Below, in pieces: positions 1-42,195 of a stretch of 64,000 nt of DNA (its first letter is position 1; each line of letters starts with the position of its first letter). Made by a program: the position numbers and the translations under genes. The notes beneath the pieces were generated by a model. It ran no database searches. It was given only the letters and a program-made list of their open reading frames with translations, and was not told the origin of the DNA. The stretch is from the NCBI RefSeq assembly GCF_024758725.1, contig NZ_CP096972.1, forward strand, positions 62,001 through 126,000. Reading direction: 5' to 3'. The stretch is from Sphingomonas sp. SUN039. GTDB taxonomy: Bacteria > Pseudomonadota > Alphaproteobacteria > Sphingomonadales > Sphingomonadaceae.

Positions 1-1136
1 AACAGGTGACGGCACAGCGCTTCCTGCGTCTGGAAATGGATATGCGTCAGCGCGCCGCTCTCCAGGCCGCGCTGTCCGGCCGCGATGACCGAGCGGTCCT
101 CGGCGTGAATGTCGCGCGCCGTCGCCATCGCATATTCGCGCCCAAAGCGTTCGCTGGCGCTGGCGTCGTCGCCGACCCAGTAGAGCCGGATCACGCCCCG
201 CGATTTCGATGCCGAGACCGGATAGACGACATGCGAGAAGTGCTGGACCGCTGTGCCCAGAATGAAGAAATTCGGGAACAGCGCAAAATAGCTGCGGCCG
301 TGCGCCCCTGATACCAGATTACGCTTCGCCGCTGCGACTGCGCCGCGCCCGAAACCGAGCGCCGCGAACGGCTTCACCGCCGGGTCGGGGTTGGAATAGA
401 GCGTTTGCGTCCGGTGCGGCCCGTGAAAGCCGAACGCTGCCGGATAGGCGAACGGATTTTCCGCGCTGAACGCGGCTTCGCCCGAGCGCGAATGGATGAA
501 GCGCAGGTGGTAGTTCTCCTGGAAATTATCGTAGGTCAGCTTCCAGTTGGCATCGATGTCATAGACATATTCGCTGAACGTCGTGGCCTGCGCCACCGGC
601 AGCGTTTCGAGTTGCTCGGCAAGCCCCTGTAGCCAGTCACGCAGCGGCGGCGGGTCGGGCGCGAAGTTGATGAAGATCAACCCTGCACAGACATCGGCCG
701 TAACCTGCTTGAGCGCGCAGTCCTTTTTGTCGATGCCGAACGAAGCGAAATCGGGTGCCGAGAGCAGCGCGCCATCGGTGCCGAAGGTCCACATATGATA
801 GGGACAGCTGAACTTCGACCGTTTCCCCTGCGCCTCCTCGACCAGCTGTGTCCCCCGGTGCGTGCAGACGTTGTGGAATGCGCGGATCACGCCATCCTTG
901 CTGCGCACAATAAGGAGCGAGGCTTTGGCAAACTCGATCTCGCGCCGGATAAAGCTGCCGGGTTCGGGCAGTTCGCAGACATGACCGATCTCGATCCAGC
1001 TCCGCATGAAGACGGCTTTGCGCTCGAGCTCGTAGTAATCGGGATCGTAATAGGGGGCGGCGGGAATGGGCTCTGTGCCGAGGAACGCGACATCGGCGTC
1101 CTTCACCCGTTCGAACATCTGATCCGCATCGGCCAT
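1..1136 (-). CDS. Aromatic ring-hydroxylating dioxygenase, large (Rieske) subunit, 3' end missing
   Basis: This is the oxygenase component of a Rieske non-haem iron system, which hydroxylates or demethylates an organic substrate using electrons from a separate reductase. The first 378 residues are present and the gene runs off the left edge. The Rieske cluster ligands are visible as C91-T-H93 and C111-P-Y-H114. The mononuclear iron site is visible as D203-N-F-Q-E-N-Y-H210-LRFI-H215. The start is ATG at 1136, with GAGGA seven bases upstream. It lies 34 bp after the MarR gene on the same strand and is the last visible gene of the operon that begins at 7828. No reductase or ferredoxin partner is beside it in the window. 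The substrate is unknown; the family assignment is firm. Confidence 0.92.
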   Translation of the reverse strand, partial: MADADQMFERVKDADVAFLGTEPIPAAPYYDPDYYELERKAVFMRSWIEIGHVCELPEPGSFIRREIEFAKASLLIVRSKDGVIRAFHNVCTHRGTQLVEEAQGKRSKFSCPYHMWTFGTDGALLSAPDFASFGIDKKDCALKQVTADVCAGLIFINFAPDPPPLRDWLQGLAEQLETLPVAQATTFSEYVYDIDANWKLTYDNFQENYHLRFIHSRSGEAAFSAENPFAYPAAFGFHGPHRTQTLYSNPDPAVKPFAALGFGRGAVAAAKRNLVSGAHGRSYFALFPNFFILGTAVQHFSHVVYPVSASKSRGVIRLYWVGDDASASERFGREYAMATARDIHAEDRSVIAAGQRGLESGALTHIHFQTQEALCRHL

Positions 1137-1170
1137 CGCGTCATCCTCGCTTCCCCGCGCGAAGGGTCGG

Positions 1171-1722
1171 TCAGGTCATTCGCCCGCCTCTGGCAAAATC
1201 GTTGAGGATTTGCGCGCACAGCATGATGTCGTCGCGCGAATAGCCTGACAATCGATCCGACAGGAAAGCATCGAGATCATCGCCGAGACGATTGAAGACC
1301 TTGCGTCCCGCCGGGGTGAGCGACAGCGTGGCGCGGCGACCGTCGGTCTTGTCGCGCCCCTGGACGATCAACCCGGCATCGGCGAGCTTGTTGAGCTCGG
1401 CCGTGATCAGGCTGCGTCCGACCTTGTAGAACTCGGCGAGTTCATGCGGCGCAATCGGACCTCTGCCGATCATCCCGATGATCCACGGCCCGCGTGGTCC
1501 CAGCGAGAACTCGACGCAGAGCGCTTTGGTGGCATGGGTAAACTGACCCCGCGCCGAAGTCAGCGCATGGGTGAAGGCGCGCATATCCTCATGGCTGAGC
1601 GCGCGCTCAGCCGTTCCGGAATTTTCGACTGCGCGAAGCGGCACCGCTGACTGTTCCCTTGAGTGGCGGGCCTGCCCTAATCGCCTGCGCGCCTTCGGCG
1701 CAAGGCTAACTGCGCTGTCCAC
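1171..1722 (-). CDS. MarR-family transcriptional regulator
   Basis: This is a cytoplasmic winged-helix DNA-binding protein. The recognition region runs from about residue 92 (IAPHELAEFYKVGRSLITAE) into a wing with the DGRRATLSLT motif typical of MarR. The GTG start at 1722 gives 183 residues, which is about 40 longer than usual. An internal ATG at 1584 would give a normal-sized 137-residue protein. The GTG is supported by its position only 5 bp after the HiPIP stop, which suggests translational coupling. Lying inside the operon between the exported redox proteins and the Rieske oxygenase, it probably controls this operon or the divergent receptor in response to a substrate. That role is inferred from position only. 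Confidence 0.85.
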   Translation of the reverse strand: MDSAVSLAPKARRRLGQARHSREQSAVPLRAVENSGTAERALSHEDMRAFTHALTSARGQFTHATKALCVEFSLGPRGPWIIGMIGRGPIAPHELAEFYKVGRSLITAELNKLADAGLIVQGRDKTDGRRATLSLTPAGRKVFNRLGDDLDAFLSDRLSGYSRDDIMLCAQILNDFARGGRMT

Positions 1723-1727
1723 GGATT

Positions 1728-2033
1728 TCAGCCCTTCTTAGCCCAGGACCGGCAGACGCCGGTCGCGCCGACCGGTCCGCCCGTCAGCAGTTGGCATTTG
1801 CCGCAGCCTGCCGCCGTCGCTGTGAAGAAGGCGCATTGGCCGCAGGCCTTGGCGGGGTCTGTCGATACCGGCACGAACCCCAATGCCTTACGCATGCTTT
1901 TTTGGCTGGCGGGTAGCGTGTCGGGGTTGAAGCATACCGCATCGGCGGCGCGCGCTGCGGTTGCGAACCCGAAAGCGACGAGCGGTGCGACGCCCGCAAG
2001 GCCGAGGAAAGTACGTCTAGTGCTGGGGGGCAT
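1728..2033 (-). CDS. High-potential iron-sulfur protein (HiPIP), Tat-exported
   Basis: This is a small periplasmic electron carrier holding a 4Fe-4S cluster. The protein has 101 residues. It begins with a Tat-type signal (STRRTFLGLAG followed by a hydrophobic stretch ending near ATAARA). The cluster ligands fit the HiPIP pattern: C64, C67, C80 and C94, with the family's QLL/GG spacing between the last two. Two extra cysteines (C34, C77) are present. ATG at 2033 was chosen over the longer open frame because the signal peptide starts there. It overlaps the end of the VOC gene by 17 bp. HiPIPs usually pass electrons between a cytochrome and a terminal enzyme, which fits its neighbours: cytochrome c', the haem lipoprotein and the Rieske oxygenase. 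Confidence 0.85.
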   Translation of the reverse strand: MPPSTRRTFLGLAGVAPLVAFGFATAARAADAVCFNPDTLPASQKSMRKALGFVPVSTDPAKACGQCAFFTATAAGCGKCQLLTGGPVGATGVCRSWAKKG

Positions 2034-2487
2034 GGCTCGGCTCCGGGCTGATGCGGCGTTCGACCAGTTCGAACAAATAGCCGTCAGGGTCGGCAATTGT
2101 CATGATGCGATACCCCTTCATCACGTCGCGGATGGGGGAGGGCGCATAGCCCGCCGCCTTGAGCCGCGCAGCTATCGCGTCGAGGTCGGGCACGCGCAGC
2201 GCGATGCGGCTGAGGCCGTTGCCCTGGACGATCTTCGCGCCGCTCTTGCCTTCGTTGAGCAGGATGATGCCCGGTTGCGGGTGCTCCTTGCTGAAACCCA
2301 GGATGATCTCGCGCGCTGTGCCGCGCGGAATTTCCGCCACAACGACCATACCGAGTCCGGCCGTGTAGAAACGCAGCGACGTGTCGATTGTGCTGGTCCG
2401 CAGACTCGGTCCTATCAGGGTCGGAAGTTCCTGCGCCGTCGCGGGGATCGCCGCAACGGCCAGCAACAGCGCGGCAATCCGCCTCAT
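2017..2487 (-). CDS. Secreted VOC (glyoxalase/extradiol-like fold) protein
   Basis: The 156-residue protein has a Sec signal peptide (MRRIAALLLAVAAIPATAQ) followed by one vicinal-oxygen-chelate domain. The two beta-alpha-beta-beta-beta halves are recognisable, from DTSLRFYTAGLGM through the C-terminal segment IADPDGYLFELVER. VOC proteins are usually cytoplasmic, so an exported version is unusual and suggests a periplasmic substrate-binding or ring-modifying role. The start at 2487 overlaps the stop of the DUF1552 gene as ATGA. An upstream in-frame start would lack a signal at its N-terminus, so the shorter form was chosen. The exact reaction cannot be told from sequence. Confidence 0.78.
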   Translation of the reverse strand: MRRIAALLLAVAAIPATAQELPTLIGPSLRTSTIDTSLRFYTAGLGMVVVAEIPRGTAREIILGFSKEHPQPGIILLNEGKSGAKIVQGNGLSRIALRVPDLDAIAARLKAAGYAPSPIRDVMKGYRIMTIADPDGYLFELVERRISPEPSHAPQH

Positions 2488-3824
2488 GCGACCAACTCGC
2501 CGATGCTCTTGTTGGTTTCCAGACTCGCCGCGCCCCATTTGTCGACCGACACGCCCATCAACTGCTGGAGCGTCAGCCCGACGCGCGCGACCGAGGTGCC
2601 TTCGCCCTTGATATGCTGGCCGGTCTTCACGCGACCGCCGCCGCTGCCGGCAGTCATCATCGGGATATTGTCGATGGTGTGGAATTTGGCGAATTCGGTC
2701 TCGCTGTGCGCGAAGACGAGCGTGTTATCGAGCAATGTGCGGTCGCCCTCCTTCACCCCGTCGAGCGCCGAAACGAACGTCGTCCATCCTTCCATGCACT
2801 TGTTGACGAACCAGGTCGCGTCGGGCTGATAGCCCAAACGACTATCGAGCGGTTCCTCGTGCGTCAGCTGGTGGTGGGTGATCGTGCTGCCGATGCGGGT
2901 CAGCGACGACGCGCCGTTGTTGAAATTCATGTTGAACACCCGCGTGTTGTCGCACGCCAGCGCCATCACCAGCAGGTCGGTCATGAGCTTGTGGTTGACC
3001 ATGACGTTTTCGATGTCGGCGGTCACCGGGCGCTCATTGGGCGCGGCGGGGACGACACAGGCCTGCTTCGGCTCGGGCTTGGTGAGTTCCACGTCGAGCT
3101 GCTTTTCGATCTGGCGCAGCGAAGTGAAATACTGGTCGAGCTTGGCCTTGTCGGCGGCCCCGAGCCGCGCGTCGAGCGCCTGGCGCTGGTCGCCGATGGC
3201 CGACAGCACGCTGCGCCGTGCCATCGTGGCGGGATCGGGCGTGAAGTCGGCCTTGTTCGGATCGCGGAAGCCGGTGCCGAACAGCCGCGCGTAGAGCGCA
3301 GCGGGCGACCCTTCCGCCGGGTTGAGATTGCCGTTGCCGCGTCCGCTGAGCGAGTTGCGCGGGTCGCCGGTCGAGGAGAGTTCGAGCGAGCGAAAGCGGG
3401 TGCGCGTGCCGATGACGTCGCCGATCAGCACGTCGAAAGAGGCGGCGGGAAGGTTGCCCTCCGCCGTCGCCGCCATACCGGTGCGGATGCCGATGCCGCC
3501 GCTGGTGTGCGGCAGGTTGGCCTTGCCATCGAGCGGAATGTTGAAGTCCGACAGGATGTTGATCTTGTGCTGCAGCGCGCGGATCGGTTCGAGTTCGGGT
3601 TTGAGGTCGTAATCCTTGCCGACCTTGTCGGGGTACCAGCGGTTCGGGTTGACGCCGAGACCCCAGAACCACGCGCCGAAGCGGACCGGCATCGGCGCAC
3701 CGGTCGCGGCCATCGCCGTGCCGTTCCCATCGAGGAAAATGTCGAGCAGCGGCAGGCCGACCGCGACGGCCGCCCCTTGCAACGAGCCGCGCAGCAGGCT
3801 GCGACGGTTGAAATCGAAGGTCAT
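2484..3824 (-). CDS. DUF1552 protein, Tat-exported
   Basis: This 446-residue protein belongs to the DUF1552 family, whose members are often encoded next to DUF1587/1592-type cytochromes. It carries a twin-arginine signal (NRRSLLRGSLQG) and then a region with FGAWFWGLGVNPNRWYP near residue 50. The body resembles secreted alkaline-phosphatase-superfamily-like folds (FAHSETEFAKFH, HTIDNIPMMTAGSGGG), but that comparison is tentative. The function of the family is not established. The ATG at 3824 overlaps the stop of the upstream DUF1592 gene by four bases, and its own stop overlaps the VOC start in the same way. The strict pairing with the haem protein suggests that the two act together in the periplasm. 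Confidence 0.85.
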   Translation of the reverse strand: MTFDFNRRSLLRGSLQGAAVAVGLPLLDIFLDGNGTAMAATGAPMPVRFGAWFWGLGVNPNRWYPDKVGKDYDLKPELEPIRALQHKINILSDFNIPLDGKANLPHTSGGIGIRTGMAATAEGNLPAASFDVLIGDVIGTRTRFRSLELSSTGDPRNSLSGRGNGNLNPAEGSPAALYARLFGTGFRDPNKADFTPDPATMARRSVLSAIGDQRQALDARLGAADKAKLDQYFTSLRQIEKQLDVELTKPEPKQACVVPAAPNERPVTADIENVMVNHKLMTDLLVMALACDNTRVFNMNFNNGASSLTRIGSTITHHQLTHEEPLDSRLGYQPDATWFVNKCMEGWTTFVSALDGVKEGDRTLLDNTLVFAHSETEFAKFHTIDNIPMMTAGSGGGRVKTGQHIKGEGTSVARVGLTLQQLMGVSVDKWGAASLETNKSIGELVA

Positions 3825-5500
3825 CGGCGTGTTCCCATGTTCGAGAAGGCAACGGTGGTGGGGGCGCCCAATGGCTTGACGGCGACCCGCCAGGCATCGG
3901 GCATGGTCGCGACCTGCTGGAACAGGTCGGCGATCCGGTAGCCCTTGGCAGCGAAGGTCTTTTGCAGGACGGCAGAGGCCTCCAGCGCGTCCTCGGTCGA
4001 GCGGCCCGTCGCATATTCGAGCGCGCGGTTGGCGACGCACTCGGTGGTGGCGGGATTGGCGGCGAGCGCCCGACCCAGTCCCGCAGCACCCGTAACCGCG
4101 ACATCCTCGACCTTCGACGACACGTCGATGGGCGCGCCATTCTCGGTCTTGCGCCCCGACCCAATCCCGTCGAATCGTTCGAGCGGCAGGCCGATGGGAT
4201 CGGTCAGGGTATGGCACCCCGCACAGACCGGATCGCTGTTGTGCACGCTCAGCCGGATGCGCGCGGTCGGCATCGTCTTGTTGTTGATGTCCTGCACGGC
4301 GGTGAAATTCACATTGCCCGGCGGGTTCGGGACCGGCTGGCAGAGCAGCAGTTCCCGCACAGCGCGCCCCCGGATCGTCGGCGAGCTGCGCCCCGAATGC
4401 GAATAGAGCGCGAGGAATCCGGCCTGCGCCAACAGCCCGGCCCGGTCTCCGTCGGCGGGAAATTCCTGGGCTTCCCACCCGACGGCTGCGCGCACCGGCA
4501 CCTGATAGACCGTGCCCAGCGCACGCGTCATGAAAGTGCGGCGCGTCGTGAACAGGTCACGATAATCGCCGCCGCGGGTCACGAGCTGGTCGACGATGGT
4601 GCGCAGCATCTGTTCGGGCAGCGCCATCGCCACATCGCGGTTGAAACGCGGATAGACGAGCGGATCCTTGGCGATCTCGTCGAACTTTTCGAACAGCAGC
4701 ATGTCGGCGAAAAAGGCGCGCACGCCCGCCTCGAAGCGCGGCGAGGCGACCATGTGCCGGGCGATGGCATCGAGCTTGGCGGGGTCGTTCAGGTCGCCGT
4801 TAGCGGCTGCCGTCAGCAGGACATCGTTCGGCGCCGAATTCCACAGGAGAAAGCTGAGCCGTGCTGCGCGGGCATAATCGTCGATCCGAAGCTCGCCCGC
4901 ATGCATTGGGTCCGGCTCGGCGGTTTCGATGACATAGAGGAAGTCGGGCGCGACAAGCATTGCGGCAAGAGCAAGTTCGAGTCCCTTGTGAAACGATCCG
5001 GTCTTGAGCGTGCCCGCGTCGGCCATTGCGGCATAGGCAGCAAGCTCGCCCTGGGTCATCGGGCGACGGAACAGGTAGCGGCCGATGTGGGCGAGGACTG
5101 CACGCGTACAGCCATTGTCGGGCATGGTCGCGTTCCTGGGCGTGCAGCGCAGGAACGAGGCGCGATGCGCGTCATCGAACACTTGCCCGGCGATGCTGCG
5201 CGCCATCGCGTCGAATTGCTCGAGGCCGGTCGGCGAGATCGTGGCGCTGGTCGCGCCGGTCGCGATCAGCTGGTGCTGTGGACGCACGATCGGCTCGAAA
5301 CGACCCGCGACCCGGATGTCGGTACCGAAGATGTCGGCGATGGTGTTGCGATATTGCGCTTCGGTCAGCCGCCGCATCGCCACGACCTGCCCGAGTGGGC
5401 GGGAGGCGGCCGCCGGCGCGGCGGCGCTAACCTTCACCTCCTCCTTCGGCGCGCAGGACGGGAGTGCGAGCGCGGCAAGGATGAGGGCGAGCCGTTTCAC
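3821..5500 (-). CDS. DUF1592/1588/1585-type cytochrome c lipoprotein
   Basis: This is a 559-residue exported protein of the multi-domain DUF1587-1592-1595-1588-1585 family, best known from planctomycetes and myxobacteria. A lipoprotein signal ends in LALPSC with the lipidated cysteine at residue 16. The N-terminal part contains the RRLTEAQYRNTIADIFG motif typical of the first domain. A single c-type haem site, C426-AG-C429-H430, lies in the C-terminal third, and the region after it (DPIGLPLERFDGIG) is also typical. The start is GTG at 5500, which overlaps the upstream stop as GTGA. It is predicted to be a membrane-anchored periplasmic redox protein partnered with the DUF1552 product. The substrate is unknown. 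Confidence 0.88.
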   Translation of the reverse strand: MKRLALILAALALPSCAPKEEVKVSAAAPAAASRPLGQVVAMRRLTEAQYRNTIADIFGTDIRVAGRFEPIVRPQHQLIATGATSATISPTGLEQFDAMARSIAGQVFDDAHRASFLRCTPRNATMPDNGCTRAVLAHIGRYLFRRPMTQGELAAYAAMADAGTLKTGSFHKGLELALAAMLVAPDFLYVIETAEPDPMHAGELRIDDYARAARLSFLLWNSAPNDVLLTAAANGDLNDPAKLDAIARHMVASPRFEAGVRAFFADMLLFEKFDEIAKDPLVYPRFNRDVAMALPEQMLRTIVDQLVTRGGDYRDLFTTRRTFMTRALGTVYQVPVRAAVGWEAQEFPADGDRAGLLAQAGFLALYSHSGRSSPTIRGRAVRELLLCQPVPNPPGNVNFTAVQDINNKTMPTARIRLSVHNSDPVCAGCHTLTDPIGLPLERFDGIGSGRKTENGAPIDVSSKVEDVAVTGAAGLGRALAANPATTECVANRALEYATGRSTEDALEASAVLQKTFAAKGYRIADLFQQVATMPDAWRVAVKPLGAPTTVAFSNMGTRR

Positions 5501-6633
5501 TTCGTTGCTCCCGCGATCTGCGCCGCCGGGACGCGGTCGAACACGAACGCAGGTACGGCAGCGACGTCGAACGCGGCGGACACCGTCGTGCACTGCCCGG
5601 TCGTGGGATCGCGGCCGCCATCAGCGAGTTTCTTGAGCGTGTTGTATTGCGCGGCGCAGTCCATCCCCGCGCCGACCGCCGCGCCGAAGCCGCCGGTGAC
5701 CGTCGACAGGATCACGTTGAGCGGCGTCTGATAGGCACCCATCAATCCCGAGATCGATCCGTCTGGCGCGAAGTTCAGGCGCAGGCGCGCGTCGCGCAGA
5801 TCGTATTCGCCGCGCTGGCCGCGCAAACCCCCGTGGCCGAAAATGCGCCGCAGCCGCATGTCGACCGGTGCGCTGGTCAGAACGCCCTTGTCGATCCGCC
5901 CGTGCAGGACATTGCGCCATTTGGCGGTGTGGCCGACGGTGAAACTCGCGCCGGGCAGGATGTTCTGGCGGCTGTCGGAAATCGGCAGGTCGTCGGTCGA
6001 GGCGAAGACGATTTCGACGTTTTCGTCGCGGTCGAAACTGTCGATGCCGCGCACGATCATGACCATCGCATGTTCGCCGGTGACGAGGTTGATCTTGGCA
6101 CCGCGCACGATATCGCCCGCCTTGCCGTCGACGCCGCGATAATTTCTCGTGCAGCCCATCGCGCGATAGGCCTGGTTGTCGATGCCGCGCTCGCCCCTGG
6201 GTCCGACGAACTCGGTATGGCCGCAGCCGCCTTTTTCCTGGTCCATGTCGAGGCCGATCGCGGTCTTGCCCTTATATTCGGCTTGCGTCGCACGTTCGGG
6301 GAAGAGTTCGGGATCGGCGCAGATATTGGTGTTGTTCGGGCCGAACGCCCAGGCTGCGGAGGCTTTGACGAGTTCGGCCTCACCCGCAGGTGCCGACATG
6401 CGCGTACGATCGGGCGGGGCGAGCGTCTTGAGGAAATTCTCGCGCAGCGACCCGGCGAGCCCTTCCGGGCAATCGTCCTTGCCCTGATAAATCGAGGGCG
6501 CGAACTCGGTGATGACGAAACCCAGCTCGCCGTCGGTGGGCAGCGGGGGGCCGACCGGAGCTTTGTCCGCCGCGCCGAGTGTGAAGAGCGCAGCGACGGC
6601 AAGCGCCGGTCGGGCAAGGCTGGAAAAGCGCAT
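5497..6633 (-). CDS. Exported protein of unknown function, operon-linked to DUF1592/DUF1552
   Basis: I do not recognise this 378-residue protein. It starts with a Sec signal peptide (MRFSSLARPALAVAALF, probable cleavage near LGAAD). The mature part is rich in loops and glycine and has a few cysteines, for example in GPNNTNICADPELFP, in GGCGHTEF and close to the C-terminus. No CxxCH haem motif or transmembrane helix follows the signal. Its start shares one base with the stop of the preceding gene (TGATG) and its stop overlaps the GTG of the DUF1592 gene. Such tight coupling suggests it belongs to the same complex, perhaps as a structural or substrate-binding subunit. That is inference from position. 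Confidence 0.75.
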   Translation of the reverse strand: MRFSSLARPALAVAALFTLGAADKAPVGPPLPTDGELGFVITEFAPSIYQGKDDCPEGLAGSLRENFLKTLAPPDRTRMSAPAGEAELVKASAAWAFGPNNTNICADPELFPERATQAEYKGKTAIGLDMDQEKGGCGHTEFVGPRGERGIDNQAYRAMGCTRNYRGVDGKAGDIVRGAKINLVTGEHAMVMIVRGIDSFDRDENVEIVFASTDDLPISDSRQNILPGASFTVGHTAKWRNVLHGRIDKGVLTSAPVDMRLRRIFGHGGLRGQRGEYDLRDARLRLNFAPDGSISGLMGAYQTPLNVILSTVTGGFGAAVGAGMDCAAQYNTLKKLADGGRDPTTGQCTTVSAAFDVAAVPAFVFDRVPAAQIAGATK

Positions 6634-7358
6634 CACTGTCGCTCCGTCGAGAGGGTGAGCAGGACATCGCCGGCAGCCACGTCGGTCGATGACGCGTCGG
6701 CGGCAACGAACACCGCCGATCCGCGCCACGCCCATTGCGGGCGGTCGCGGTCGCGCAGGATGGTCCAGTCGCCGACGGGAAGGCTTGCGGCTGCGGCAGC
6801 GAAAGGCGTGCGCGCCCCGCACGCGCTGGCACACGCCGACGCAAACAAGGCACGCCCGCCGGAATCTGCCAGGACATAGCCGACGTCGGTCAGACGGGCA
6901 TCGACCGACGGCGGTGCGACGATCTCGGGTTTGGGAGGGATATAGCCGAGCGCCAGGAACAGATCCTTCCAGTGGTCGCCGCCGATGTCTCCCGGCTTTG
7001 CGTCGGCGTTAAAGGCGAAGACCGGACTCCCGTCGAATGCCCATTGCGGACCTTGCGCTCCCTGAACGACCGTCCAGCTGCCGACCGGTTTGGCGTCGCC
7101 CGGTGCCTTCAGCGGCGTCCAAGCCGCCGCGCACGGCCCGGTGCAATAAGTCAGCGTCAAGCTGGTTCGCGCGCGCACGCTGCGCAGGCTCAGGCCGTAA
7201 AGCGTGCGCCCGTCCTTGCCGACATAGACACGTCCCAGCGGGCTGGAACCGGTCGACACGCCCGACGGAAATGCTGCAGCGTCCGGGGTTGCCGCAACAG
7301 CCCCCGATGTTATGGCAAGCGCCAGCCCCAGCGCGAGCAATCGGCGTACGCGCATCAT
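6633..7358 (-). CDS. Secreted-repeat (COG4315-like) exported protein
   Basis: This 241-residue protein has a Sec signal (RRLLALGLALAITSGAVA). Two divergent repeats follow that resemble the secreted repeat found in COG4315-type lipoproteins: a strand pattern with GRTLYGL, a cysteine pair in TYCTGPCAAAWTPL, then VGSWTVVQGAQGPQWAFDG. The second copy reads GRALFASACASACGARTPF and VGDWTILRDRDRPQWAWRG. The family is of unknown biochemical role but is periplasmic or surface exposed. ATG at 7358 was chosen because it overlaps the upstream stop as ATGA; an upstream TTG is less likely. The repeat relation between residues of about 60-130 and 160-230 is visible directly. Confidence 0.75.
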   Translation of the reverse strand: MMRVRRLLALGLALAITSGAVAATPDAAAFPSGVSTGSSPLGRVYVGKDGRTLYGLSLRSVRARTSLTLTYCTGPCAAAWTPLKAPGDAKPVGSWTVVQGAQGPQWAFDGSPVFAFNADAKPGDIGGDHWKDLFLALGYIPPKPEIVAPPSVDARLTDVGYVLADSGGRALFASACASACGARTPFAAAAASLPVGDWTILRDRDRPQWAWRGSAVFVAADASSTDVAAGDVLLTLSTERQ

Positions 7359-7828
7359 GTCTTTTCGACCCGGAACGCCTTGTGGCAAGCGGCACAGGTC
7401 TGGCCGAGCGCCTTGGCCTGAACCCGTATCGCCGCCGCATCGCCCGATTGCGCGGCGGCGGCAAAGACCTGTGCCTGTCTGGCGAAATTATCCTGGGCGG
7501 CTTTGAACTGTGCGGGTTGCGTCCAGATTTCGGGCCTGGCAGCCGTCTTCACGCCGGGACGCGGGCCGCTCCCGGCGGGGAAAAACCCGTATTGCGCCTG
7601 CGCCGTGCTGCGGATCTGGCGGGCCGAGAGCTGCACGATAAAGACTTGCGGCGCGGGCTTGCGGAGCTCGTCGTTAACATTCTTGAACGCCGCGCCGAGT
7701 TCGCGATAGCTGTCGATGCGCGCTTTGTACGGGTCCGCACCGGCCGCAACGATGGGCGCGGCCGTCAGGGCCAGCGTCGCAACTGCGGCAGCGCCGACAT
7801 TGCGGTATATTCCCCTCGTCCACTGCAT
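7355..7828 (-). CDS. Cytochrome c'/c-556-like protein
   Basis: This 157-residue periplasmic cytochrome is first in the operon. A Sec signal covers roughly residues 1-30. The mature domain is helical, and the only haem-binding motif, C145-AA-C148-H149, lies close to the C-terminus, as is characteristic of the cytochrome c'/c-556 four-helix-bundle class. Proteins of this class carry electrons or bind NO and other small ligands. The ATG at 7828 is preceded by AGGATCGGCAGG. An upstream TTG five codons earlier was rejected. The gene faces the TonB-dependent receptor across the 294-bp divergent region and probably sets the transcription start of the whole redox operon. Confidence 0.85.
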   Translation of the reverse strand: MQWTRGIYRNVGAAAVATLALTAAPIVAAGADPYKARIDSYRELGAAFKNVNDELRKPAPQVFIVQLSARQIRSTAQAQYGFFPAGSGPRPGVKTAARPEIWTQPAQFKAAQDNFARQAQVFAAAAQSGDAAAIRVQAKALGQTCAACHKAFRVEKT

Positions 7829-7866
7829 CCTGCCGATCCTCAATCTATTTTCTCATACTCGTGATA

Positions 7867-7881
7867 GTTCAACAATTGAAC
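7867..7881. promoter_or_regulatory. Perfect dyad (GTTCAA-N3-TTGAAC), candidate operator
   Basis: This perfect inverted repeat with 6-bp arms and a 3-bp spacer lies 38 bp upstream of the cytochrome c' start, inside the divergent region between the redox operon and the receptor gene. The rest of the 294-bp region (7829-8122) shows no open reading frame, and no clear sigma-70 boxes were picked out. A MarR or TetR dimer encoded in this window could bind here; that assignment is a guess. Confidence 0.45.
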
Positions 7882-8122
7882 CTGTAAAGCCACGCCGTCA
7901 CGTTGCGATGCCGTTGCGTTTCAGGCGAAATTTTTCGGAAACGACAGAAAATGCCGCAAAAGCGCCATCGGCGATGCCGGATGTTCTCACAATCGCGGCG
8001 GCGATATATGGGAAATGACGGTGCGTCGGTTCTTCACCTTTGCCCGTTTCGCGCATACCCGCTGTCAGGAATGACGGGATCGACAACCGACCCGCAAAGA
8101 CCTCGGAGGGGAGGATCGTCTC

Positions 8123-10876
8123 GTGAAATCCATTCAGAAACTTGCTTTGGTCGGCGTCAGCCTTGGCGCGCTCATGGTGCCGGTTCAGGTCGCAGCGCAG
8201 GCGCCAAAGCCCGCAGAGGCCGATGCCAAGGACGCCGATATCGTCGTTACCGGCACGCTGATTCGCAACACACAGGTCGTCGGATCGCAAACCCTAACGG
8301 TCGATGCCGCCAAGATCACCGAGCGGGCCGCGACCTCGACCAACGAATTGCTGCGGGCCATCCCGCAAATTGCAAATACGTTCAACGGCCGGATCGAGGG
8401 TGACCCGCGTGGCGTCTCCGGAAATGGCACGTCGATCACGCGTCCCAATCTCCGTAACATTCCGTCGACCGGCGCGTCGTCGGGTGCGCTTACCCTGTTG
8501 ATGGTCGATGGCATGCGCCTCACCCCGGTCGGTGTGAATCAGGCCTCGGTCGATCCCGACGTTATTCCCGTTGCTGTGCTCGAAGGCATCGATATCGTGA
8601 CCGATGGCGGCTCTTCGCTTTATGGCGCAGACGCGGTTGCGGGCGTCATGAACTTCCGTTCGATGCGGAAGTTCGACGGTATCAAGATCGACGGCAATTC
8701 CGCCCATGGGACGACGATCAGGGGGTATAAGGCCTGGGATGCTGCGCTGACGGTCGGCACGAGCTGGGCAACCGGCAATGCCTATATTTCGGGCGGTTAC
8801 TCGCACCGCAACCTCATCCAGAATTTTCAGGCCCCCTGGACGTCGGGCCTGTCGTACACCGCCGCAGGCATAGGCAGTTTTTCTGGCACCCAGTGCAACA
8901 GCCCCGTTGGTACGCAGATCACCTACCGCTATCTTGCGATTCCCGGCGTGTTCACCGGCTGGACCAACAATCCAGCAGCGGGCGGTGCCACGACGCCTAT
9001 CGGTACGCCTTGTGACGATGTCGCCACCGGCACCTATCTGCCCGAACAAAAGCGTATGAACGTCTTTGCCGCCGTTTCGCAGCAGTTCGGTGACAATGTC
9101 GACCTGCGCGTCACGGCTTATTGGGTGAAGCGCGATACCTACATCAATTCCTTTGCACGCGGTTACACGACTCCGGCACAGGCCGCCCCGTCGGGCGCGC
9201 CGGGGACGCTAGGCGCGCCGGCAACCTCGCCAACAACGATTCTGGGCGGCACAGGTTTCTCTTTTCTGCCCAATGCGGCCTATCGCAACGCGTTTCAGAC
9301 CGTCGGGTTCGAGACTTGGGGCATCTCGCCCGAACTGAAGGTCAAGCTGGGTGGAGATTGGCAGTTGCGGGTCAGCACCCATTACGGTCGCTCGACCAAC
9401 TCGCAGAGCTTCCCTGGCACCGATGCCGTCAAGGCGCAGTGCTATATCAGCGGAACGAGCGGCGGCAGTACCGCTGCATGCAACGGGATCGCCGGCGGCC
9501 AGCTCAATCCGCTGAACGCCGCAGCCGCGAGCGCCGCCGTCATCAACGACATCCTCAACTATACGAGCGCACAGGACACGAAGCACGAATTGTTCTATGC
9601 TCGGGCGGTTATCGACGGCTCGCTCTTCACTTTGCCCGGTGGCGAAGCGAAGATTGCTGGCGGCATCGAATTTCAGAACAACAAGGCGCAGAGCCGGATC
9701 AATGCAGGCACGTTCGGCTCGATCAGCGCCGTTCCGTTCAGCAGCTACAGCCGCAACGCAAAGTCGGCTTTCGCAGAAGTCTCGCTGCCGATCACGACCT
9801 TTGCTACGGTAAACGGGTCGGTTCGCTACGACGACTATAGTGACTTCGGCACCACGACGAATCCGAGCATCGGTTTCAAGCTGACACCCGCACCTTGGCT
9901 CAAGCTGTTCGGACACTGGAACACGTCGTTCAACGCGCCGACTGCCATTGACGGGTTTGCGTTCGGTACCGGCCGTTTTGTCTGCGGGATTTATGTGGCG
10001 GGGAGTACTGTCGCCTCGCAACGTCCCAATGATCCGCTGGGGCGCGACACGAGCAGGCAGGGGACCTGCGCCATGGTCTTGCAAGGGTCGCGACCGGGCC
10101 TGAAGCCGCAAACTGCCACAAGCTGGGCTGTAGGCTTTGAAGTGACACCGACACGCAACATCAAATTCGGCGGTCAGTTCTACTCCATTGCGCTGAAGAA
10201 TACGCTGGGCAGTGTGAACCCGGCCGACAGCACGACCTACACGACGAACCCGACGTTCTACACCTACAACGTCACATCGACCCAATATGCTGCCATTTTG
10301 GGGACGCTTGTGAACGGTGCTCAACTCGGCGCGCAGCAGCCGTCCGGTAACATCGCTTTGATCGTGGATACCCGTACCACCAACCTGAATGCAGCGAGGC
10401 TGGAAGGTGTGGATTTCAACGCGGCGATCACATGGGATCTGGATGATGTGAACAAGCTGACACTCGGCCTGGATGGGACACGCCAGACCCGTGCGCAGCT
10501 TTCTACCAACGGCTTGCTCACGAATGAGCTGTCGCGTGGTAGTCCGGCGCTGACCGCGATAACCTATCTCGCGCTCAGCGGGGGGCCGTTTACCGCCCGG
10601 ATTGCGTTCAACCATTCTGGCCGCTTCACCGACAATTCCCTGAATAATCTCGGCGTTGCCGAAGAAGTGAATCCTTTCACGACGACCGATGTAAGCGTTG
10701 GGTACAGCTTCAGGAATGTCGATGGCCCCCTCAGCGGTCTGTCGGTGCGGCTGAACATCGACAATGCGTTTGAAACGACGCCGCAGACGATCAGGCGCGC
10801 AAACACGAACAACGTAAGCTACAACAACTGGACATTGGGTCGCGTGGTCAAGCTGGGCGCGAGCTTCAAGTTCTGA
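8123..10876 (+). CDS. TonB-dependent outer-membrane receptor
   Basis: This 917-residue protein takes up a ligand across the outer membrane using TonB/ExbBD energy. A signal peptide (residues 1-26, ending VQVAAQ) precedes a plug domain that starts around DADIVVTGTLIRN and includes SSLYGADAVAGVMNFR, the conserved end of the plug. The remainder forms the beta barrel and ends in phenylalanine (KLGASFKF), as expected for BAM-assembled proteins. The start is GTG at 8123, behind a strong GGAGGGGAGG ribosome site. Sphingomonads use many such receptors for uptake of aromatic and hydrophobic compounds. Its divergent position from the periplasmic redox operon suggests that it supplies that operon's substrate. 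Confidence 0.93.
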   Translation: MKSIQKLALVGVSLGALMVPVQVAAQAPKPAEADAKDADIVVTGTLIRNTQVVGSQTLTVDAAKITERAATSTNELLRAIPQIANTFNGRIEGDPRGVSGNGTSITRPNLRNIPSTGASSGALTLLMVDGMRLTPVGVNQASVDPDVIPVAVLEGIDIVTDGGSSLYGADAVAGVMNFRSMRKFDGIKIDGNSAHGTTIRGYKAWDAALTVGTSWATGNAYISGGYSHRNLIQNFQAPWTSGLSYTAAGIGSFSGTQCNSPVGTQITYRYLAIPGVFTGWTNNPAAGGATTPIGTPCDDVATGTYLPEQKRMNVFAAVSQQFGDNVDLRVTAYWVKRDTYINSFARGYTTPAQAAPSGAPGTLGAPATSPTTILGGTGFSFLPNAAYRNAFQTVGFETWGISPELKVKLGGDWQLRVSTHYGRSTNSQSFPGTDAVKAQCYISGTSGGSTAACNGIAGGQLNPLNAAAASAAVINDILNYTSAQDTKHELFYARAVIDGSLFTLPGGEAKIAGGIEFQNNKAQSRINAGTFGSISAVPFSSYSRNAKSAFAEVSLPITTFATVNGSVRYDDYSDFGTTTNPSIGFKLTPAPWLKLFGHWNTSFNAPTAIDGFAFGTGRFVCGIYVAGSTVASQRPNDPLGRDTSRQGTCAMVLQGSRPGLKPQTATSWAVGFEVTPTRNIKFGGQFYSIALKNTLGSVNPADSTTYTTNPTFYTYNVTSTQYAAILGTLVNGAQLGAQQPSGNIALIVDTRTTNLNAARLEGVDFNAAITWDLDDVNKLTLGLDGTRQTRAQLSTNGLLTNELSRGSPALTAITYLALSGGPFTARIAFNHSGRFTDNSLNNLGVAEEVNPFTTTDVSVGYSFRNVDGPLSGLSVRLNIDNAFETTPQTIRRANTNNVSYNNWTLGRVVKLGASFKF

Positions 10877-15576: not shown

Positions 15577-15783
15577 TCAGCCGTTGGATGCTTCGTCGCT
15601 CAGCGAGATCGCCCGCGACGGGCATTGGTCGACAGCGCGACGGACCAAATCCTCGAGCTCCGCTGGCACCTCGCCGACGAGTATGGTGGCATAGCCGTCG
15701 TCGTGGAGTTCGAACACTTCGGGGCTGATCCCCACGCAGATGCCGAACCCCGCGCAGACCTCCGGATCGATGCGGACTTTCAT
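15577..15783 (-). CDS. 3Fe-4S ferredoxin, P450 partner
   Basis: This 68-residue ferredoxin carries electrons to the P450 encoded directly upstream. The visible ligands are C10, C16 and C54 in CAGFGICVG and QCPSRAI. The second position of the usual four-cysteine motif is glycine (AGFG), which fits a 3Fe-4S cluster as in other P450 ferredoxins. The start at 15783 overlaps the P450 stop as ATGA, so the two are translated together. No ferredoxin reductase gene is adjacent, so one must be provided from elsewhere. Confidence 0.92.
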   Translation of the reverse strand: MKVRIDPEVCAGFGICVGISPEVFELHDDGYATILVGEVPAELEDLVRRAVDQCPSRAISLSDEASNG

Positions 15784-17096
15784 CGCGGCGCTGCTTCCAC
15801 CGCGTCGAACTCGATTGCGATATGCGTCAGGCCACGCAGGATGAAGGTCGGCAGGTAGCTGTAGCGGCGCGCGTCCGCCGGGCCGTGGACGCTCTCGTCG
15901 ATGCGGATGTCGCTGGTCCGGTCGAACATGCGGTTGAGCGCGACGACTGTTTCCGCTCGCGCGAGCGGGGCACCGGGGCAGGCGTGGCGACCGGCGCCGA
16001 AGGCGATGTGCAGCCGCGCGTTCTTGCGGTCGAGCTGGAACTCGCCCGGGTTCTCGAACTTGCGGGCGTCGCGGTTGGCGGCAGCGTTGGCGACGTAGAG
16101 AAAAGTGCCTGCGGGCACATCGACGCCGCCCAGCGTCGTCGGCTTCTTCACCAAGCGGAAATCGCCCTTCACCGGCCCTTCGATCCGCAGGCATTCCTCG
16201 ACGAAATTGGGGATCAGGCTGCGGTCCTCGCGCAGGGTTTTCTGGATATCGGGGCGTTCGGCGATCGTCTTGAAGGCATAGCTGAGCAGGCGGACTGTGG
16301 TTTCCTGTCCGGCGGCAAACACATTGGCGGCAATGCGCGCGACCTCGATCGGTTCGGGCACATCGCCGCCGGGGAAAGTGGCAGCGGCGAGCTCGGTCAG
16401 GATGCCGTCCTTCGGGTTGACCCTGCGATCCGCGATATACCAGGAGAATTTGTCGTAGAGCCATTCGAGCGGCCCGTGGTTGACCTCGCCATCGGTGCCG
16501 CCGACAACTGCCCCGCCGCTGTCCTGCTCGACGCGGATCAAGTGCTTGCGGAACTCGATGCGGTCCTCTGGCGGCACGCCGAGCAGATCGGCGACGACGA
16601 GCACCGCGAATTGCTGGGCAAACTCGTTCTGGAACTCGCATTCGCCGCGCGCCAGAAACGTGTCGATCTGCTGGTCGGCCAGCTTCCACATGAAGTCCTC
16701 ATTCTCCTTGAGGCGCTTCGGCGTGATCAGCGACATGAGCAGGGCACGGTGCTTGGTGTGCTCGGGCGGGTCCATCGTCGGCAACTGATCGTGGAAGGCG
16801 GTCTGGTCGCGATATTCCTCGATCAGTTCCGAAATGTCGTCGTTCCCGCGACCCTCCAGCGGGATCGGGCAACCCGCGAACGGGCCGCTGGTCGACATGA
16901 CATTGGAGAAGCGGGCGGGGTCGTTATAGACCTCCAGCGCCTCGTTATAGCCGGTGACCATGACTATGCCCTGGTGCGGCTCGCGCATGACCGGGCACTG
17001 GTCGCGCAGATGGTCGAAATAGGTGTAGGGATCGGTGACGAACCGGTCGCTCAGAAAGAAATTATGCGCGTCGAAGTCGTTGAGCGTCTCGGTCAT
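15780..17096 (-). CDS. Bacterial cytochrome P450
   Basis: This 438-residue soluble monooxygenase inserts one oxygen atom into an organic substrate. The I-helix motif is A262-G-Q-E-T-T267, with an unusual glutamate in place of the common aspartate before threonine. The K-helix E301-x-x-R304 and the haem loop FGAGRHACPG with axial cysteine C373 are intact. The ATG at 17096 follows GAGGGAGAG. The gene forms a two-gene unit with its ferredoxin and is divergent from the MarR-EmrA-EmrB genes. No substrate can be assigned; sphingomonad P450s of this class often hydroxylate terpenoid or steroid skeletons. Confidence 0.93.
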   Translation of the reverse strand: MTETLNDFDAHNFFLSDRFVTDPYTYFDHLRDQCPVMREPHQGIVMVTGYNEALEVYNDPARFSNVMSTSGPFAGCPIPLEGRGNDDISELIEEYRDQTAFHDQLPTMDPPEHTKHRALLMSLITPKRLKENEDFMWKLADQQIDTFLARGECEFQNEFAQQFAVLVVADLLGVPPEDRIEFRKHLIRVEQDSGGAVVGGTDGEVNHGPLEWLYDKFSWYIADRRVNPKDGILTELAAATFPGGDVPEPIEVARIAANVFAAGQETTVRLLSYAFKTIAERPDIQKTLREDRSLIPNFVEECLRIEGPVKGDFRLVKKPTTLGGVDVPAGTFLYVANAAANRDARKFENPGEFQLDRKNARLHIAFGAGRHACPGAPLARAETVVALNRMFDRTSDIRIDESVHGPADARRYSYLPTFILRGLTHIAIEFDAVEAAPR

Positions 17097-28183: not shown

Positions 28184-28588
28184 ATGACATGGCAACGCTC
28201 GCGCATCCGGCTGGACCGTGACAATCGCGCCTTCTGGACCGGCGGTGCCGAAGGCAAGCTCAACATCGTCCGGTGCGACGATTGCGGGCAGTTCACCCAT
28301 CCGCCGCGCGAAATCTGCCGCCATTGCCAGTCGGAAAATGTCGCGCCGCATGCCGTCGCGGGGACGGGTGCGGTCGATACCTATACGGTCAACTACCAGG
28401 CGTGGGCCAAGGACATGGAGGTGCCCTTCGTCATTGCTCGGGTGCGGCTCGACGATGTGCCGGGCGTCTATCTGACGACAAACATCGTCAACTGCCCGGT
28501 CGATGCGGTCGATATCGACGATCGGGTGAAGGTCGTGTTCGAGGAGCAGGACGGCATCTGGTATCCACTGTTCGAGAAGGTCGCCTGA
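28184..28588 (+). CDS. DUF35 OB-fold acyl-CoA-associated protein with zinc ribbon
   Basis: This 134-residue protein has a rubredoxin-like zinc ribbon (C31-DD-C34 ... C45-RH-C48) followed by a DUF35 OB fold. Members bind CoA thioesters and partner thiolase-like enzymes; the C-terminal domain of ChsH2 in steroid side-chain degradation is the best known example, where it is needed for the Ltp2 aldolase. Here the gene shares one base with the next start (TGATG), and the next gene encodes a thiolase-like protein. That is the same pairing. ATG at 28184 gives the family's normal N-terminus. Confidence 0.9.
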   Translation: MTWQRSRIRLDRDNRAFWTGGAEGKLNIVRCDDCGQFTHPPREICRHCQSENVAPHAVAGTGAVDTYTVNYQAWAKDMEVPFVIARVRLDDVPGVYLTTNIVNCPVDAVDIDDRVKVVFEEQDGIWYPLFEKVA

Positions 28589-41682: not shown

Positions 41683-41695
41683 TCAGCGCGTAGCG
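41667..41695. repeat. 29-bp exact direct repeat, copy A
   Basis: These bases are identical to 43458-43486. Allowing one mismatch on each side extends the match to 37 positions (41663-41700 against 43454-43491 approximately). Copy A forms the last codons and stop of the GlcG/HbpS-like gene, in a different frame from the one used in the thiolase. Confidence 0.9.
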
Positions 41696-42195
41696 GCCGC
41701 AGCGAGTGCAGCATCTTCGGCTGCCGTTCCACCCGAGACACCCAGCGCACCGACGACGCGACCATTCACGATAATCGGTACGCCACCGCCGATCGCGATC
41801 ACCTCGTCCGACGACATTAGCCGTACTTCACCGGCGGTCACGCGTTCCTGAAGTGTCGCCGTGGACACCCTCAGCCGTGCGGCCGTGCGCGCCTTTTGTT
41901 GGGCAAGCCGGATCGACGCATAGGGGGCATCTTCCATCCGGGCGAAGGCGATAAGTTCGCCCGACGGATCGACCACAGCGAAGGCCATCGACATGCTCTT
42001 TTCCGTGGCAAACGCCCGCGCGCGTCCGATGAGCGCCAAGGCGTCGTCGACCGATATCGCGAGGCCGTAGCGCGTCAGTCGCACGGCAGGTGCGGGAGCG
42101 CCGGGGTTCGCCCCGGCTGCAGCCGTTTGCGCCAAGACAGTCGCCGGAATGGCGCAGCCCGCCAACACCGATGCAGCAATTGCCATCCTGATCAT
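41683..42195 (-). CDS. GlcG/HbpS-family exported protein
   Basis: This 170-residue protein has a Sec signal (MIRMAIAASVLAGCAIPATVLAQ) and one GlcG/HbpS domain: GLAISVDDALALIGRARAFA, MAFAVVDPSGELIAFARMEDAP, ASIRLAQQKARTAA, then GGVPIIVNGRVVGALGVSGGTAAEDAA. Members bind haem or small ligands, and some act in redox sensing. The ATG at 42195 overlaps the aldo/keto reductase stop as ATGA. The stop codon is supplied by copy A of the direct repeat, so the native C-terminus may have been altered by recombination. Confidence 0.83.
   Translation of the reverse strand: MIRMAIAASVLAGCAIPATVLAQTAAAGANPGAPAPAVRLTRYGLAISVDDALALIGRARAFATEKSMSMAFAVVDPSGELIAFARMEDAPYASIRLAQQKARTAARLRVSTATLQERVTAGEVRLMSSDEVIAIGGGVPIIVNGRVVGALGVSGGTAAEDAALAAAATR

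What the first reader, a model, noticed from the sequence alone, without database searches (positions are those of the whole stretch)
1728..7828. Undescribed periplasmic redox operon: seven exported proteins with three cofactor types
Seven consecutive overlapping genes all encode exported products: cytochrome c', secreted-repeat protein, unknown 378-aa protein, DUF1592-type haem lipoprotein, Tat DUF1552 protein, secreted VOC protein and Tat HiPIP. MarR and Rieske oxygenase genes follow. Five of the joints are ATGA, GTGA or TGATG. Established: DUF1592 and DUF1552 families are often adjacent and have no known reaction. Inference: the operon oxidises a substrate in the periplasm and passes electrons through cytochrome and HiPIP, with uptake by the divergent TonB receptor.
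Basis: partly seen in the sequence, partly recalled or inferred. Interest (0 to 1): 0.78.

Follow-up and report, generated by a model that had tools for sequence, protein, structure and literature searches.

The report
Conserved periplasmic redox operon, function unknown
A run of seven overlapping genes for exported proteins, four of them of unknown function and three carrying predicted haem or iron-sulphur groups, is part of a gene set found in many bacteria that probably oxidises an unknown substrate outside the inner membrane; the reaction has not been shown.

Summary
Seven overlapping minus-strand genes (7828-1728) encode exported proteins: cytochrome c', Lipoprotein_15 repeat protein (rep15), a 378-aa protein without Pfam family (U378), a one-haem DUF1592-type lipoprotein (PSD), a Tat DUF1552 protein (HXX), VOC and Tat HiPIP; MarR and Rieske genes follow. 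Comparison turns this into a conserved module. Of 78 loci fetched by HXX similarity, 52 have full flanks: PSD and U378 in 52 of 52, rep15 38, cyt c' 26, HiPIP 21, cyt b561 17, VOC 13. In two genome samples U378 was found only in genomes with HXX (7 of 199, 6 of 385). HiPIP occurs in 2 of 149 Sphingomonadaceae, both in this operon. So PSD-HXX-U378 is the core; redox carriers are variable partners, VOC and the TonB receptor weak ones. Most likely it is a periplasmic oxidoreductase passing electrons to HiPIP or cytochrome c' (inferred). A 2017 paper calls the function of such genes unknown; my searches found none. One Chol11 copy lies beside bile-salt side-chain genes, so a knockout test is practical. 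New variant of the PSCyt3/DUF1552 pair.

The parts
7355..7828 (-). cytochrome c' (class II c-type cytochrome), Sec-type signal peptide by eye, CxxCH near the C-terminus
   Evidence: PF01322 82.9 bits vs cut-off 26.5; best PDB matches are cytochromes c'
6633..7358 (-). secreted Lipoprotein_15 repeat protein (rep15)
   Evidence: PF03640 30.2 bits vs 24.4; near HXX in 38 of 52 full-flank loci; rep15 and U378 share one frame in extra copies in L095 and L090
5497..6633 (-). U378: exported protein with no Pfam or NCBIfam family, core of the module; several Cys and Asp conserved
   Evidence: 60 family members, the window's included, gave only matches of E 0.018 or worse; C55 C161 D152 N153 Y301 D338 in 60 of 60
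3821..5500 (-). PSD: DUF1587-DUF1595-DUF1592-DUF1588-DUF1585 protein, lipoprotein here by eye, one c-type haem motif CAGCH
   Evidence: five Pfam families above cut-off; H420 C426 C429 H430 in 46 of 46 aligned
2484..3824 (-). HXX: Tat-type DUF1552 protein of a subtype with H-x-x-T-H-[E]-E in place of H-x-x-S-H-H
   Evidence: PF07586 185 bits vs 30; H106 D131 D225 R237 E240 H278 H318 H322 D366 H382 in 51 of 51 rows
2017..2487 (-). exported single-domain VOC protein
   Evidence: PF00903 54.4 bits vs 20.6; 13 of 52 full-flank loci
1728..2033 (-). Tat-type high-potential iron-sulphur protein (HiPIP), C-x2-C ... C-x13-C
   Evidence: PF01355 28.7 bits vs 22; PDB 3h31 E 3.1e-8
1171..1722 (-). MarR-type regulator (start GTG 1722 or GTG 1644)
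   Evidence: PF12802 31.1 bits vs 27; near the module in 7 of 52 full-flank loci
1..1136 (-). Rieske oxygenase alpha subunit, runs off the window start (395 aa in the genome)
   Evidence: PF00848 and PF00355; L024:15949-17136; 64% identical Rieske beside the module in L032; 3 of 52 full-flank loci
8123..10876 (+). divergent TonB-dependent receptor; a neighbour, not a conserved part
   Evidence: PF00593, PF07715; same receptor type in 2 of 78 loci

Best explanation
The operon encodes a periplasmic oxidoreductase system. HXX, exported folded by the Tat route, is the likely catalytic subunit, with an invariant set of His/Asp residues that could hold a metal site. The one-haem PSD protein is its electron-transfer partner. 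U378 with rep15 is a structural or substrate-binding part. Electrons removed from an organic substrate that reaches the periplasm pass through the PSD haem to HiPIP and/or cytochrome c', and from there to a b561-type cytochrome and the quinone pool, or to a terminal oxidase. Shown: gene content, the conserved core, co-inheritance, and the variable carriers. Read by eye: export signals. Inferred: that HXX, PSD and U378 form a complex, that HXX is catalytic, the direction of electron flow, and an organic substrate.
For: U378 and PSD beside HXX in 52 of 52 full-flank loci. U378 found only in genomes with HXX over its cut-off: 7 genomes of 199 and 6 of 385. 30 of 52 loci carry a redox carrier. HiPIP in 2 of 149 Sphingomonadaceae, both in this operon (Fisher p 5e-4); in Alphaproteobacteria 3 of the 6 HiPIP genomes are among the 6 module genomes of 385 (p 4e-5). 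Loci labelled Gammaproteobacteria (Haliea and Halioglobus included) have PSD-HXX-U378-HiPIP in 4 of 5, the fifth being cut at HXX; loci labelled Myxococcales or Myxococcota have PSD-HXX-U378 in 4 of 4, with HiPIP in 2. The distant true-HXXSHH type, with a two-haem PSD, has cyt c' and b561 downstream in 3 of 4 Sphingomonadaceae loci. Distances co-vary: HXX-PSD r 0.91, HXX-U378 r 0.93. U378 and rep15 fused in extra copies in L095 and L090. Outside the named families only four gene families recur in the same-strand runs, the commonest in 4 loci. Two genomes list five copies each, five being the number scored, which fits diverse organic substrates better than one inorganic one (inference).
Against: 22 of 52 loci have no cyt c', HiPIP or b561 nearby, so carriers may be supplied elsewhere or not be needed; two of the four module genomes in the HiPIP sample of 149 have no HiPIP match. 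No cytoplasmic catabolic gene was seen to recur widely inside the run, and the window's degradation cluster is hardly conserved with the operon. No fold could be predicted, no solved relative was found by sequence, and profile comparison did not tie HXX to DUF1501 or sulfatases. Co-variation of distances also follows from shared ancestry. No expression or biochemical data were seen in what I read.
Confidence: 0.5

Rival explanations
1. The electron flow is reversed: quinol electrons pass through b561 and cyt c'/HiPIP to PSD-HXX, which reduces or detoxifies something in the periplasm (peroxide, nitric oxide, a toxic quinone or other xenobiotic).
For: Cytochromes c' are known for binding NO (recalled). 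A MarR regulator follows the window's run, and a response regulator family lies near 11 loci and a histidine kinase family near 10 of the 79 compared (78 and the window; Pfam names from L030). No catabolic enzyme recurs widely in the run.
Against: HiPIPs usually have high potentials and act as electron donors to oxidases or photosystems (recalled), awkward for a reductase. Several copies in some genomes and placement in degradation regions in some loci fit catabolism better.
Confidence: 0.2
2. A substrate-specific form of the best explanation: the module belongs to steroid or terpenoid uptake and first oxidation in sphingomonads.
For: In Sphingobium sp. Chol11 one of two module copies lies beside an ACAD-ACAD...amidase-Rieske-amidohydrolase-CoA ligase cluster whose order matches Nov2c221/222, 227, 228 and 230 of bile-salt side-chain degradation (PMC8399759 passages; PMC12175502 passages). 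Megaplasmids of 11 Sphingobium isolates with Tom names have HXX and U378 matches; [quoted passage not shown] Sphingobium herbicidovorans MH, listed in PMC8399759 among cholate degraders, has a copy. The window holds a ChsH2-like/thiolase pair, P450 and acyl-CoA ligases.
Against: The Chol11 cluster is convergent, not co-transcribed. In S. herbicidovorans the 25 kb seen hold the module without that cluster, and its U378 is annotated as two frames. The second copy in Chol11 and TomTYG64 lies beside hydroxypyruvate isomerase and glxR genes. Chol11 and TomTYG64 are 84-99% identical over the block, the TonB receptor (60%) excepted, so shared synteny is weak evidence. The Chol11 passages that I read do not mention these genes.
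Confidence: 0.15
3. HXX is a hydrolase (alkaline-phosphatase-like, as I recall for DUF1501) acting on a polymer or ester; PSD is a haem-bearing scaffold or sensor, and carriers are only co-regulated.
For: PSCyt genes of lake Verrucomicrobia are often near sulfatase genes, and some carry carbohydrate-binding modules (PMC5615132 section 13); a table in PMC6004670 lists a Cellvibrio DUF1592 protein with CBM2. Invariant His/Asp residues fit a hydrolytic metal site equally well.
Against: Profile comparison gave no link of HXX to DUF1501 or sulfatases (probability under 4%, a weak test). HiPIP and cyt c' co-occurrence far above background is unexplained by hydrolysis alone.
Confidence: 0.13

Closest known systems
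PSCyt3/PSD proteins of Planctomycetes and Verrucomicrobia with their neighbour genes (PMC5615132)
   Same: PSCyt3 and PSD domains in one protein; the paper says that PSCyt3 genes are usually next to one family of unknown genes, which I take to be DUF1552 (the supplement that shows it was not seen)
   Different: Here PSD has one haem motif, HXX has T-H-[E]-E instead of S-H-H, U378 is a constant partner, and cyt c', HiPIP, b561 and Lipoprotein_15 genes often join the run
True HXXSHH loci of Sphingomonadaceae (L025, L026, L027)
   Same: PSD-HXX followed by cyt c' and cytochrome b561
   Different: Two haem motifs in PSD (CSRCH and CAACH or CASCH), an ankyrin-repeat protein and no U378, Lipoprotein_15, VOC or HiPIP found; HXX only 26-28% identical
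HiPIP / cytochrome c' electron carriers of proteobacteria
   Same: HiPIP cysteine pattern and Tat-type signal; class II cytochrome c
   Different: Linked to an enzyme-like core of unknown function rather than to photosynthesis or a known oxidase
Bile-salt side-chain degradation cluster of Sphingobium sp. Chol11 (scd4AB, bsa, sclA)
   Same: A module copy lies beside it
   Different: Convergent, separate run; that copy has cyt c' and b561, and no HiPIP, VOC or Lipoprotein_15 was found beside it (L086)

Membership tests
PF07586 HXXSHH (DUF1552) | profile score over the curated cut-off | tested here: met
   185 bits vs 30; match ends at profile position 286 of 307
PF07586 HXXSHH (DUF1552) | the H-x-x-S-H-H motif that gives the family its name | tested here: not met
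   HQLTHE here; H318, T321, H322 in 47 of 47 and E323 in 39 of 47 subtype rows, while the 4 true-type rows have H-x-x-S-H-H
PSCyt3-PSD cytochrome family | DUF1587, 1595, 1592, 1588 and 1585 in one protein with CxxCH in DUF1588 | tested here: met
   all five above cut-off; CAGCH at 426-430
PSCyt3-PSD cytochrome family | N-terminal second haem motif, as in the distant true-type PSD proteins | tested here: not met
   absent in the 8 subtype rows, present in the 4 true-type rows; the 45 further subtype rows hold only the profile-matched part and do not test it
HiPIP | PF01355 over cut-off, four cysteine ligands | tested here: met
   28.7 bits vs 22; alignment to 3h31
cytochrome c' | PF01322 over cut-off with C-terminal CxxCH | tested here: met
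   82.9 bits vs 26.5
cytochrome c' | five-coordinate haem | not testable with these tools
   needs spectroscopy
VOC metalloenzymes | two conserved metal-ligand histidines at the usual places (recalled) | tested here: not met
   Gly and Arg at the two places in the window protein, by eye on the alignment; positions recalled, so a lead only
alkaline phosphatase / DUF1501 superfamily (for HXX) | detectable profile similarity to DUF1501 or sulfatase | tested here: inconclusive
   hhalign probability 0.09-3.2%; unrelated controls 0.03-0.65%; DUF1501 against sulfatase itself 0.18%, so the test has little power
Ring_hydroxyl_A Rieske oxygenases (neighbour) | Rieske and catalytic domains | tested here: met
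   PF00355 and PF00848; nearest PDB sequence carnitine monooxygenase, E 3.8e-34

The most novel reading that the evidence does not exclude
HXX-PSD-U378 is an undescribed class of periplasmic metallo-oxidoreductase: a Tat-exported DUF1552 catalytic subunit and a one-haem PSD electron subunit that dehydrogenate organic molecules outside the cytoplasm and plug into whichever carrier the host has (HiPIP, cytochrome c' or b561). The PSCyt3/DUF1552 pairs of Planctomycetes and Verrucomicrobia would then be enzymes of the same class.
Probability: 0.35. Interest if true: 0.85.

Novelty: new variant of a known kind. Interest (0 to 1): 0.62.

Why it matters
[quoted passage not shown] This operon type ties such a protein and its DUF1552 partner to named electron carriers and to a new constant partner. 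It also occurs in cultured sphingomonads, one of which (Chol11) has published gene-deletion mutants (PMC8044976, PMC12175502, passages), so an old question becomes directly testable.

Tried and rejected
Strict seven-gene operon: rejected as the unit, because VOC (13 of 52), HiPIP (21 of 52) and cyt c' (26 of 52) come and go while U378, PSD and HXX do not.

Uptake by the divergent TonB receptor: not supported; that receptor type was seen in 2 of 78 loci, one of them the locus of a profile seed. TonB receptors are common in sphingomonads (recalled), so other receptors near loci were not counted as evidence.

The 11-51 kb degradation cluster as pathway partner: hardly supported. At 45% identity or more, over more than 70% of the query, one amidohydrolase of the window recurred in 2 of the 79 loci compared. 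Of genes just outside the window, the SDR beside the Rieske gene recurred in 2 (L054, L059); five others recurred in 1 or 2 loci each.

HXX as a DUF1501/sulfatase relative: no signal; the DUF1501 set included over-long reading frames, which weakens the test.

Promoters and terminators: the scan of 1000-8400 found nothing above shuffles; this does not test transcript starts.

Rows dropped: G134 and G327, G543, below the family cut-off; for G134 the 20-kb neighbourhood showed no relative of the window's proteins. G068, E 4.5e-4 with two stops inside. 26 of 78 loci were left out of the full-flank counts because of contig ends; over all 78 the counts are PSD 78, U378 74, rep15 47, HiPIP 32, cyt c' 30, b561 20, VOC 20. 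One search kept only the best 80 of 401 relatives, so the counts describe the nearest ones. In one search, 12 of 14 U378 places have a listed HXX within 5 kb on the same contig; the other two are in G441 and G520, where only five HXX candidates were scored.

Literature searches: no paper with both DUF1592 and DUF1552 or DUF1592 with Sphingo; two name DUF1552; three name any of six related terms; four name at least two of another set; two hold HiPIP, sphingomonad and periplasm terms (listing only); two searches were for Chol11 and tomatine. What I saw: PMC5615132, passages and section 13; PMC7789669, PMC6004670, PMC2754498, PMC8399759, PMC12175502, PMC8044976 and PMC10653915, passages only.

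Notebook error: the entry says 12 tomato-root megaplasmids; recount gives 11 Tom-named records plus S. [quoted passage not shown]


Full report
OBSERVATION. The seven genes are present as described, at 7828-1728 on the minus strand, with five joints of the ATGA, GTGA or TGATG kind and a 17-base overlap at the sixth. Pfam names six of the seven: cytochrome c', Lipoprotein_15, the five planctomycete-type domains (DUF1587, 1595, 1592, 1588, 1585), HXXSHH (DUF1552), VOC and HiPIP; the 378-aa protein matches no Pfam or NCBIfam family, and the 60 members of its alignment gave only Pfam matches of E 0.018 or worse. A MarR gene and a Rieske oxygenase gene follow. Export signals were read by eye. HXX (PF07586) has one match in this 3.53-Mb one-contig genome, and 1 of 7 species of its genus has it.

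HOW I NAME THE PARTS. PSD is the DUF1592-type protein, HXX the DUF1552 protein, U378 the 378-aa protein, rep15 the Lipoprotein_15 protein.

CONSERVED MODULE IN THE FAMILY. In 199 genomes HXX is over the cut-off in 11. Seven carry the window's subtype and all seven carry U378; the other four (G031, G046, G144, G164) carry the true HXXSHH type and show no U378. In 51 aligned rows the subtype is at least 50% identical to the window and the true type 26-28%. In the seven subtype neighbourhoods fetched U378, PSD and HXX lie side by side (in L032 the gene caller missed U378, which is seen).

CONSERVED MODULE WIDELY. A scan of the species-genome collection with the HXX alignment gave 401 relatives; the best 80 became 78 loci, labelled Sphingomonadales, Rhodospirillales, Caulobacteraceae, Gammaproteobacteria, Myxococcota, Vicinamibacteria and others by their record titles (metagenome labels may be wrong). 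In the 52 loci with at least 6 kb before and 4 kb after HXX, within 6.5 kb and on the same strand: PSD 52, U378 52, rep15 38, cyt c' 26, HiPIP 21, b561 17, VOC 13, MarR 7, Rieske 3. In the 20 full-flank loci of L037-L060 (68-79% identical HXX): rep15 20, cyt c' 19, HiPIP 15, b561 11, VOC 9, MarR 7, Rieske 2. In the other 32: rep15 18, cyt c' 7, HiPIP 6, b561 6, VOC 4. The profiles were iterated on these loci, so I checked with other samples. In 385 Alphaproteobacteria U378 occurs in exactly the six genomes whose HXX is over the cut-off, and 12 of 14 U378 places have a listed HXX within 5 kb. In G337 one of three HXX copies has U378 beside it; the other two score like the true type (not inspected further).

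CARRIERS. Background is low. HiPIP is found in 2 of 149 Sphingomonadaceae (G000, G021), both in this operon; two other module genomes of that sample, G071 and G139, have no match. It is found in 6 of 385 Alphaproteobacteria, 3 of them module genomes, one directly upstream of U378 (G441:C10) and one about 28 kb away (G520). Fisher tests gave 5e-4 and 4e-5. Cytochrome c' occurs in 41 of 149 genomes, one to four matches each, against 19 of 20 near loci here. Five loci are labelled Gammaproteobacteria, Haliea or Halioglobus: four have PSD-HXX-U378-HiPIP and the fifth ends at HXX. Four labelled Myxococcales or Myxococcota have PSD-HXX-U378, two of them with HiPIP. The true type in L025-L027 is followed by cyt c' and b561 too, L028 is not. 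The window's genome has a second cyt c'-b561 pair elsewhere (L160), which could serve as the missing membrane partner.

CO-INHERITANCE AND FUSION. Pairwise distances co-vary strongly (HXX-PSD 0.91 over 74 loci, HXX-U378 0.93 over 72, HXX-cyt c' 0.83 over 31, HXX-HiPIP 0.75 over 31, HXX-VOC 0.70 over 20; none of 500 shuffles reached these). Shared ancestry contributes to this. U378 and rep15 share one stop-to-stop frame in L095 (681 aa) and L090 (619 aa); both are extra copies near a module whose own U378 and rep15 are separate. In 82 same-strand runs, outside the named families only four gene families recur, the commonest in 4 loci.

RESIDUES. HXX keeps H106, D131, D225, R237, E240, H278, H318, H322, D366 and H382 in 51 of 51 rows of both types. 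The subtype has T321 and E324 in 47 of 47. PSD keeps H420, C426, C429 and H430 in the 12 rows of both types and in 46 of 46 subtype rows; the Met after the haem motif in the four true-type rows is Thr in 25 and Met in 18 of 46 subtype rows. These are candidates for a metal site and a haem site, not proof. The VOC protein lacks the usual metal-ligand histidines (recalled positions), so it is unlikely to be a typical VOC metalloenzyme.

MECHANISM. The best reading is a periplasmic oxidoreductase with interchangeable carriers. Direction of electron flow and substrate are inferred. The strongest lead on substrate is indirect. In Sphingobium sp. Chol11 one of two copies lies about 3.2 kb from the acyl-CoA dehydrogenase pair of a cluster whose gene order matches published bile-salt side-chain genes Nov2c221/222, 227, 228 and 230. 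A 2021 review says that side-chain degradation in these bacteria is catalysed by yet unknown enzymes (PMC8399759). The runs are convergent, the second copy has a different neighbourhood, and in the 25 kb seen of S. herbicidovorans the module stands without the cluster, with U378 annotated as two frames, so this stays a lead.

LIMITS. PDB sequence searches found no relative of HXX, PSD, U378 or rep15 beyond chance. No transcript or biochemical evidence was available.

VERDICT. Observation confirmed; interpretation partly supported; a new variant of the PSCyt3/DUF1552 pair with a new constant partner and defined redox carriers.

Noticed in passing
window 15577-17096, 28184-29748: P450 beside a small ferredoxin-like frame (by eye); ChsH2-like OB-fold/zinc-ribbon protein beside a thiolase-like protein, as in steroid side-chain aldolases (recalled); many acyl-CoA genes around.
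   Followed up: partly
L165:3173-8586 and L165:11821 to L166:2746 (Chol11): A module copy lies beside the bile-salt side-chain degradation cluster of Sphingobium sp. Chol11; by gene count it would be about Nov2c211-215.
   Followed up: partly
L155, L156 (pTomTYG64a): Megaplasmids of 11 Tom-named Sphingobium isolates have HXX matches, 10 of them two places; in TomTYG64 the second copy is beside IclR, hydroxypyruvate isomerase and glxR genes.
   Followed up: partly
L158:8983-10328 (S. herbicidovorans pMSHV): U378 is annotated there as two overlapping frames, so it may be split in that plasmid.
   Followed up: no
L030:2537-4665: An OmpR-type response regulator and a histidine kinase stand divergent from the module; related genes lie near 11 and 10 of 79 loci.
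   Followed up: partly
L095:9075-11117, L090:4667-6523: Extra copies of U378 and the Lipoprotein_15 protein share one reading frame near the module.
   Followed up: yes
L095:3527-3937; L090, L096, L110: A CHRD-domain gene (named on L095) or a relative lies directly upstream of the module in four runs and near seven loci; PQQ-dehydrogenase-like genes lie near six loci.
   Followed up: no
L032:1072-2732, 5032-5949: In G172 a module copy lies near genes that look like F420 biosynthesis and an F420-dependent oxidoreductase (by eye, recalled).
   Followed up: no
window 41683-42186: HbpS-like haem-degrading domain protein next to an aldo/keto reductase.
   Followed up: no
L160:5893-7055 (G000:C1:19892-21054): A second, stand-alone cytochrome c' and cytochrome b561 pair in the window's genome.
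   Followed up: partly
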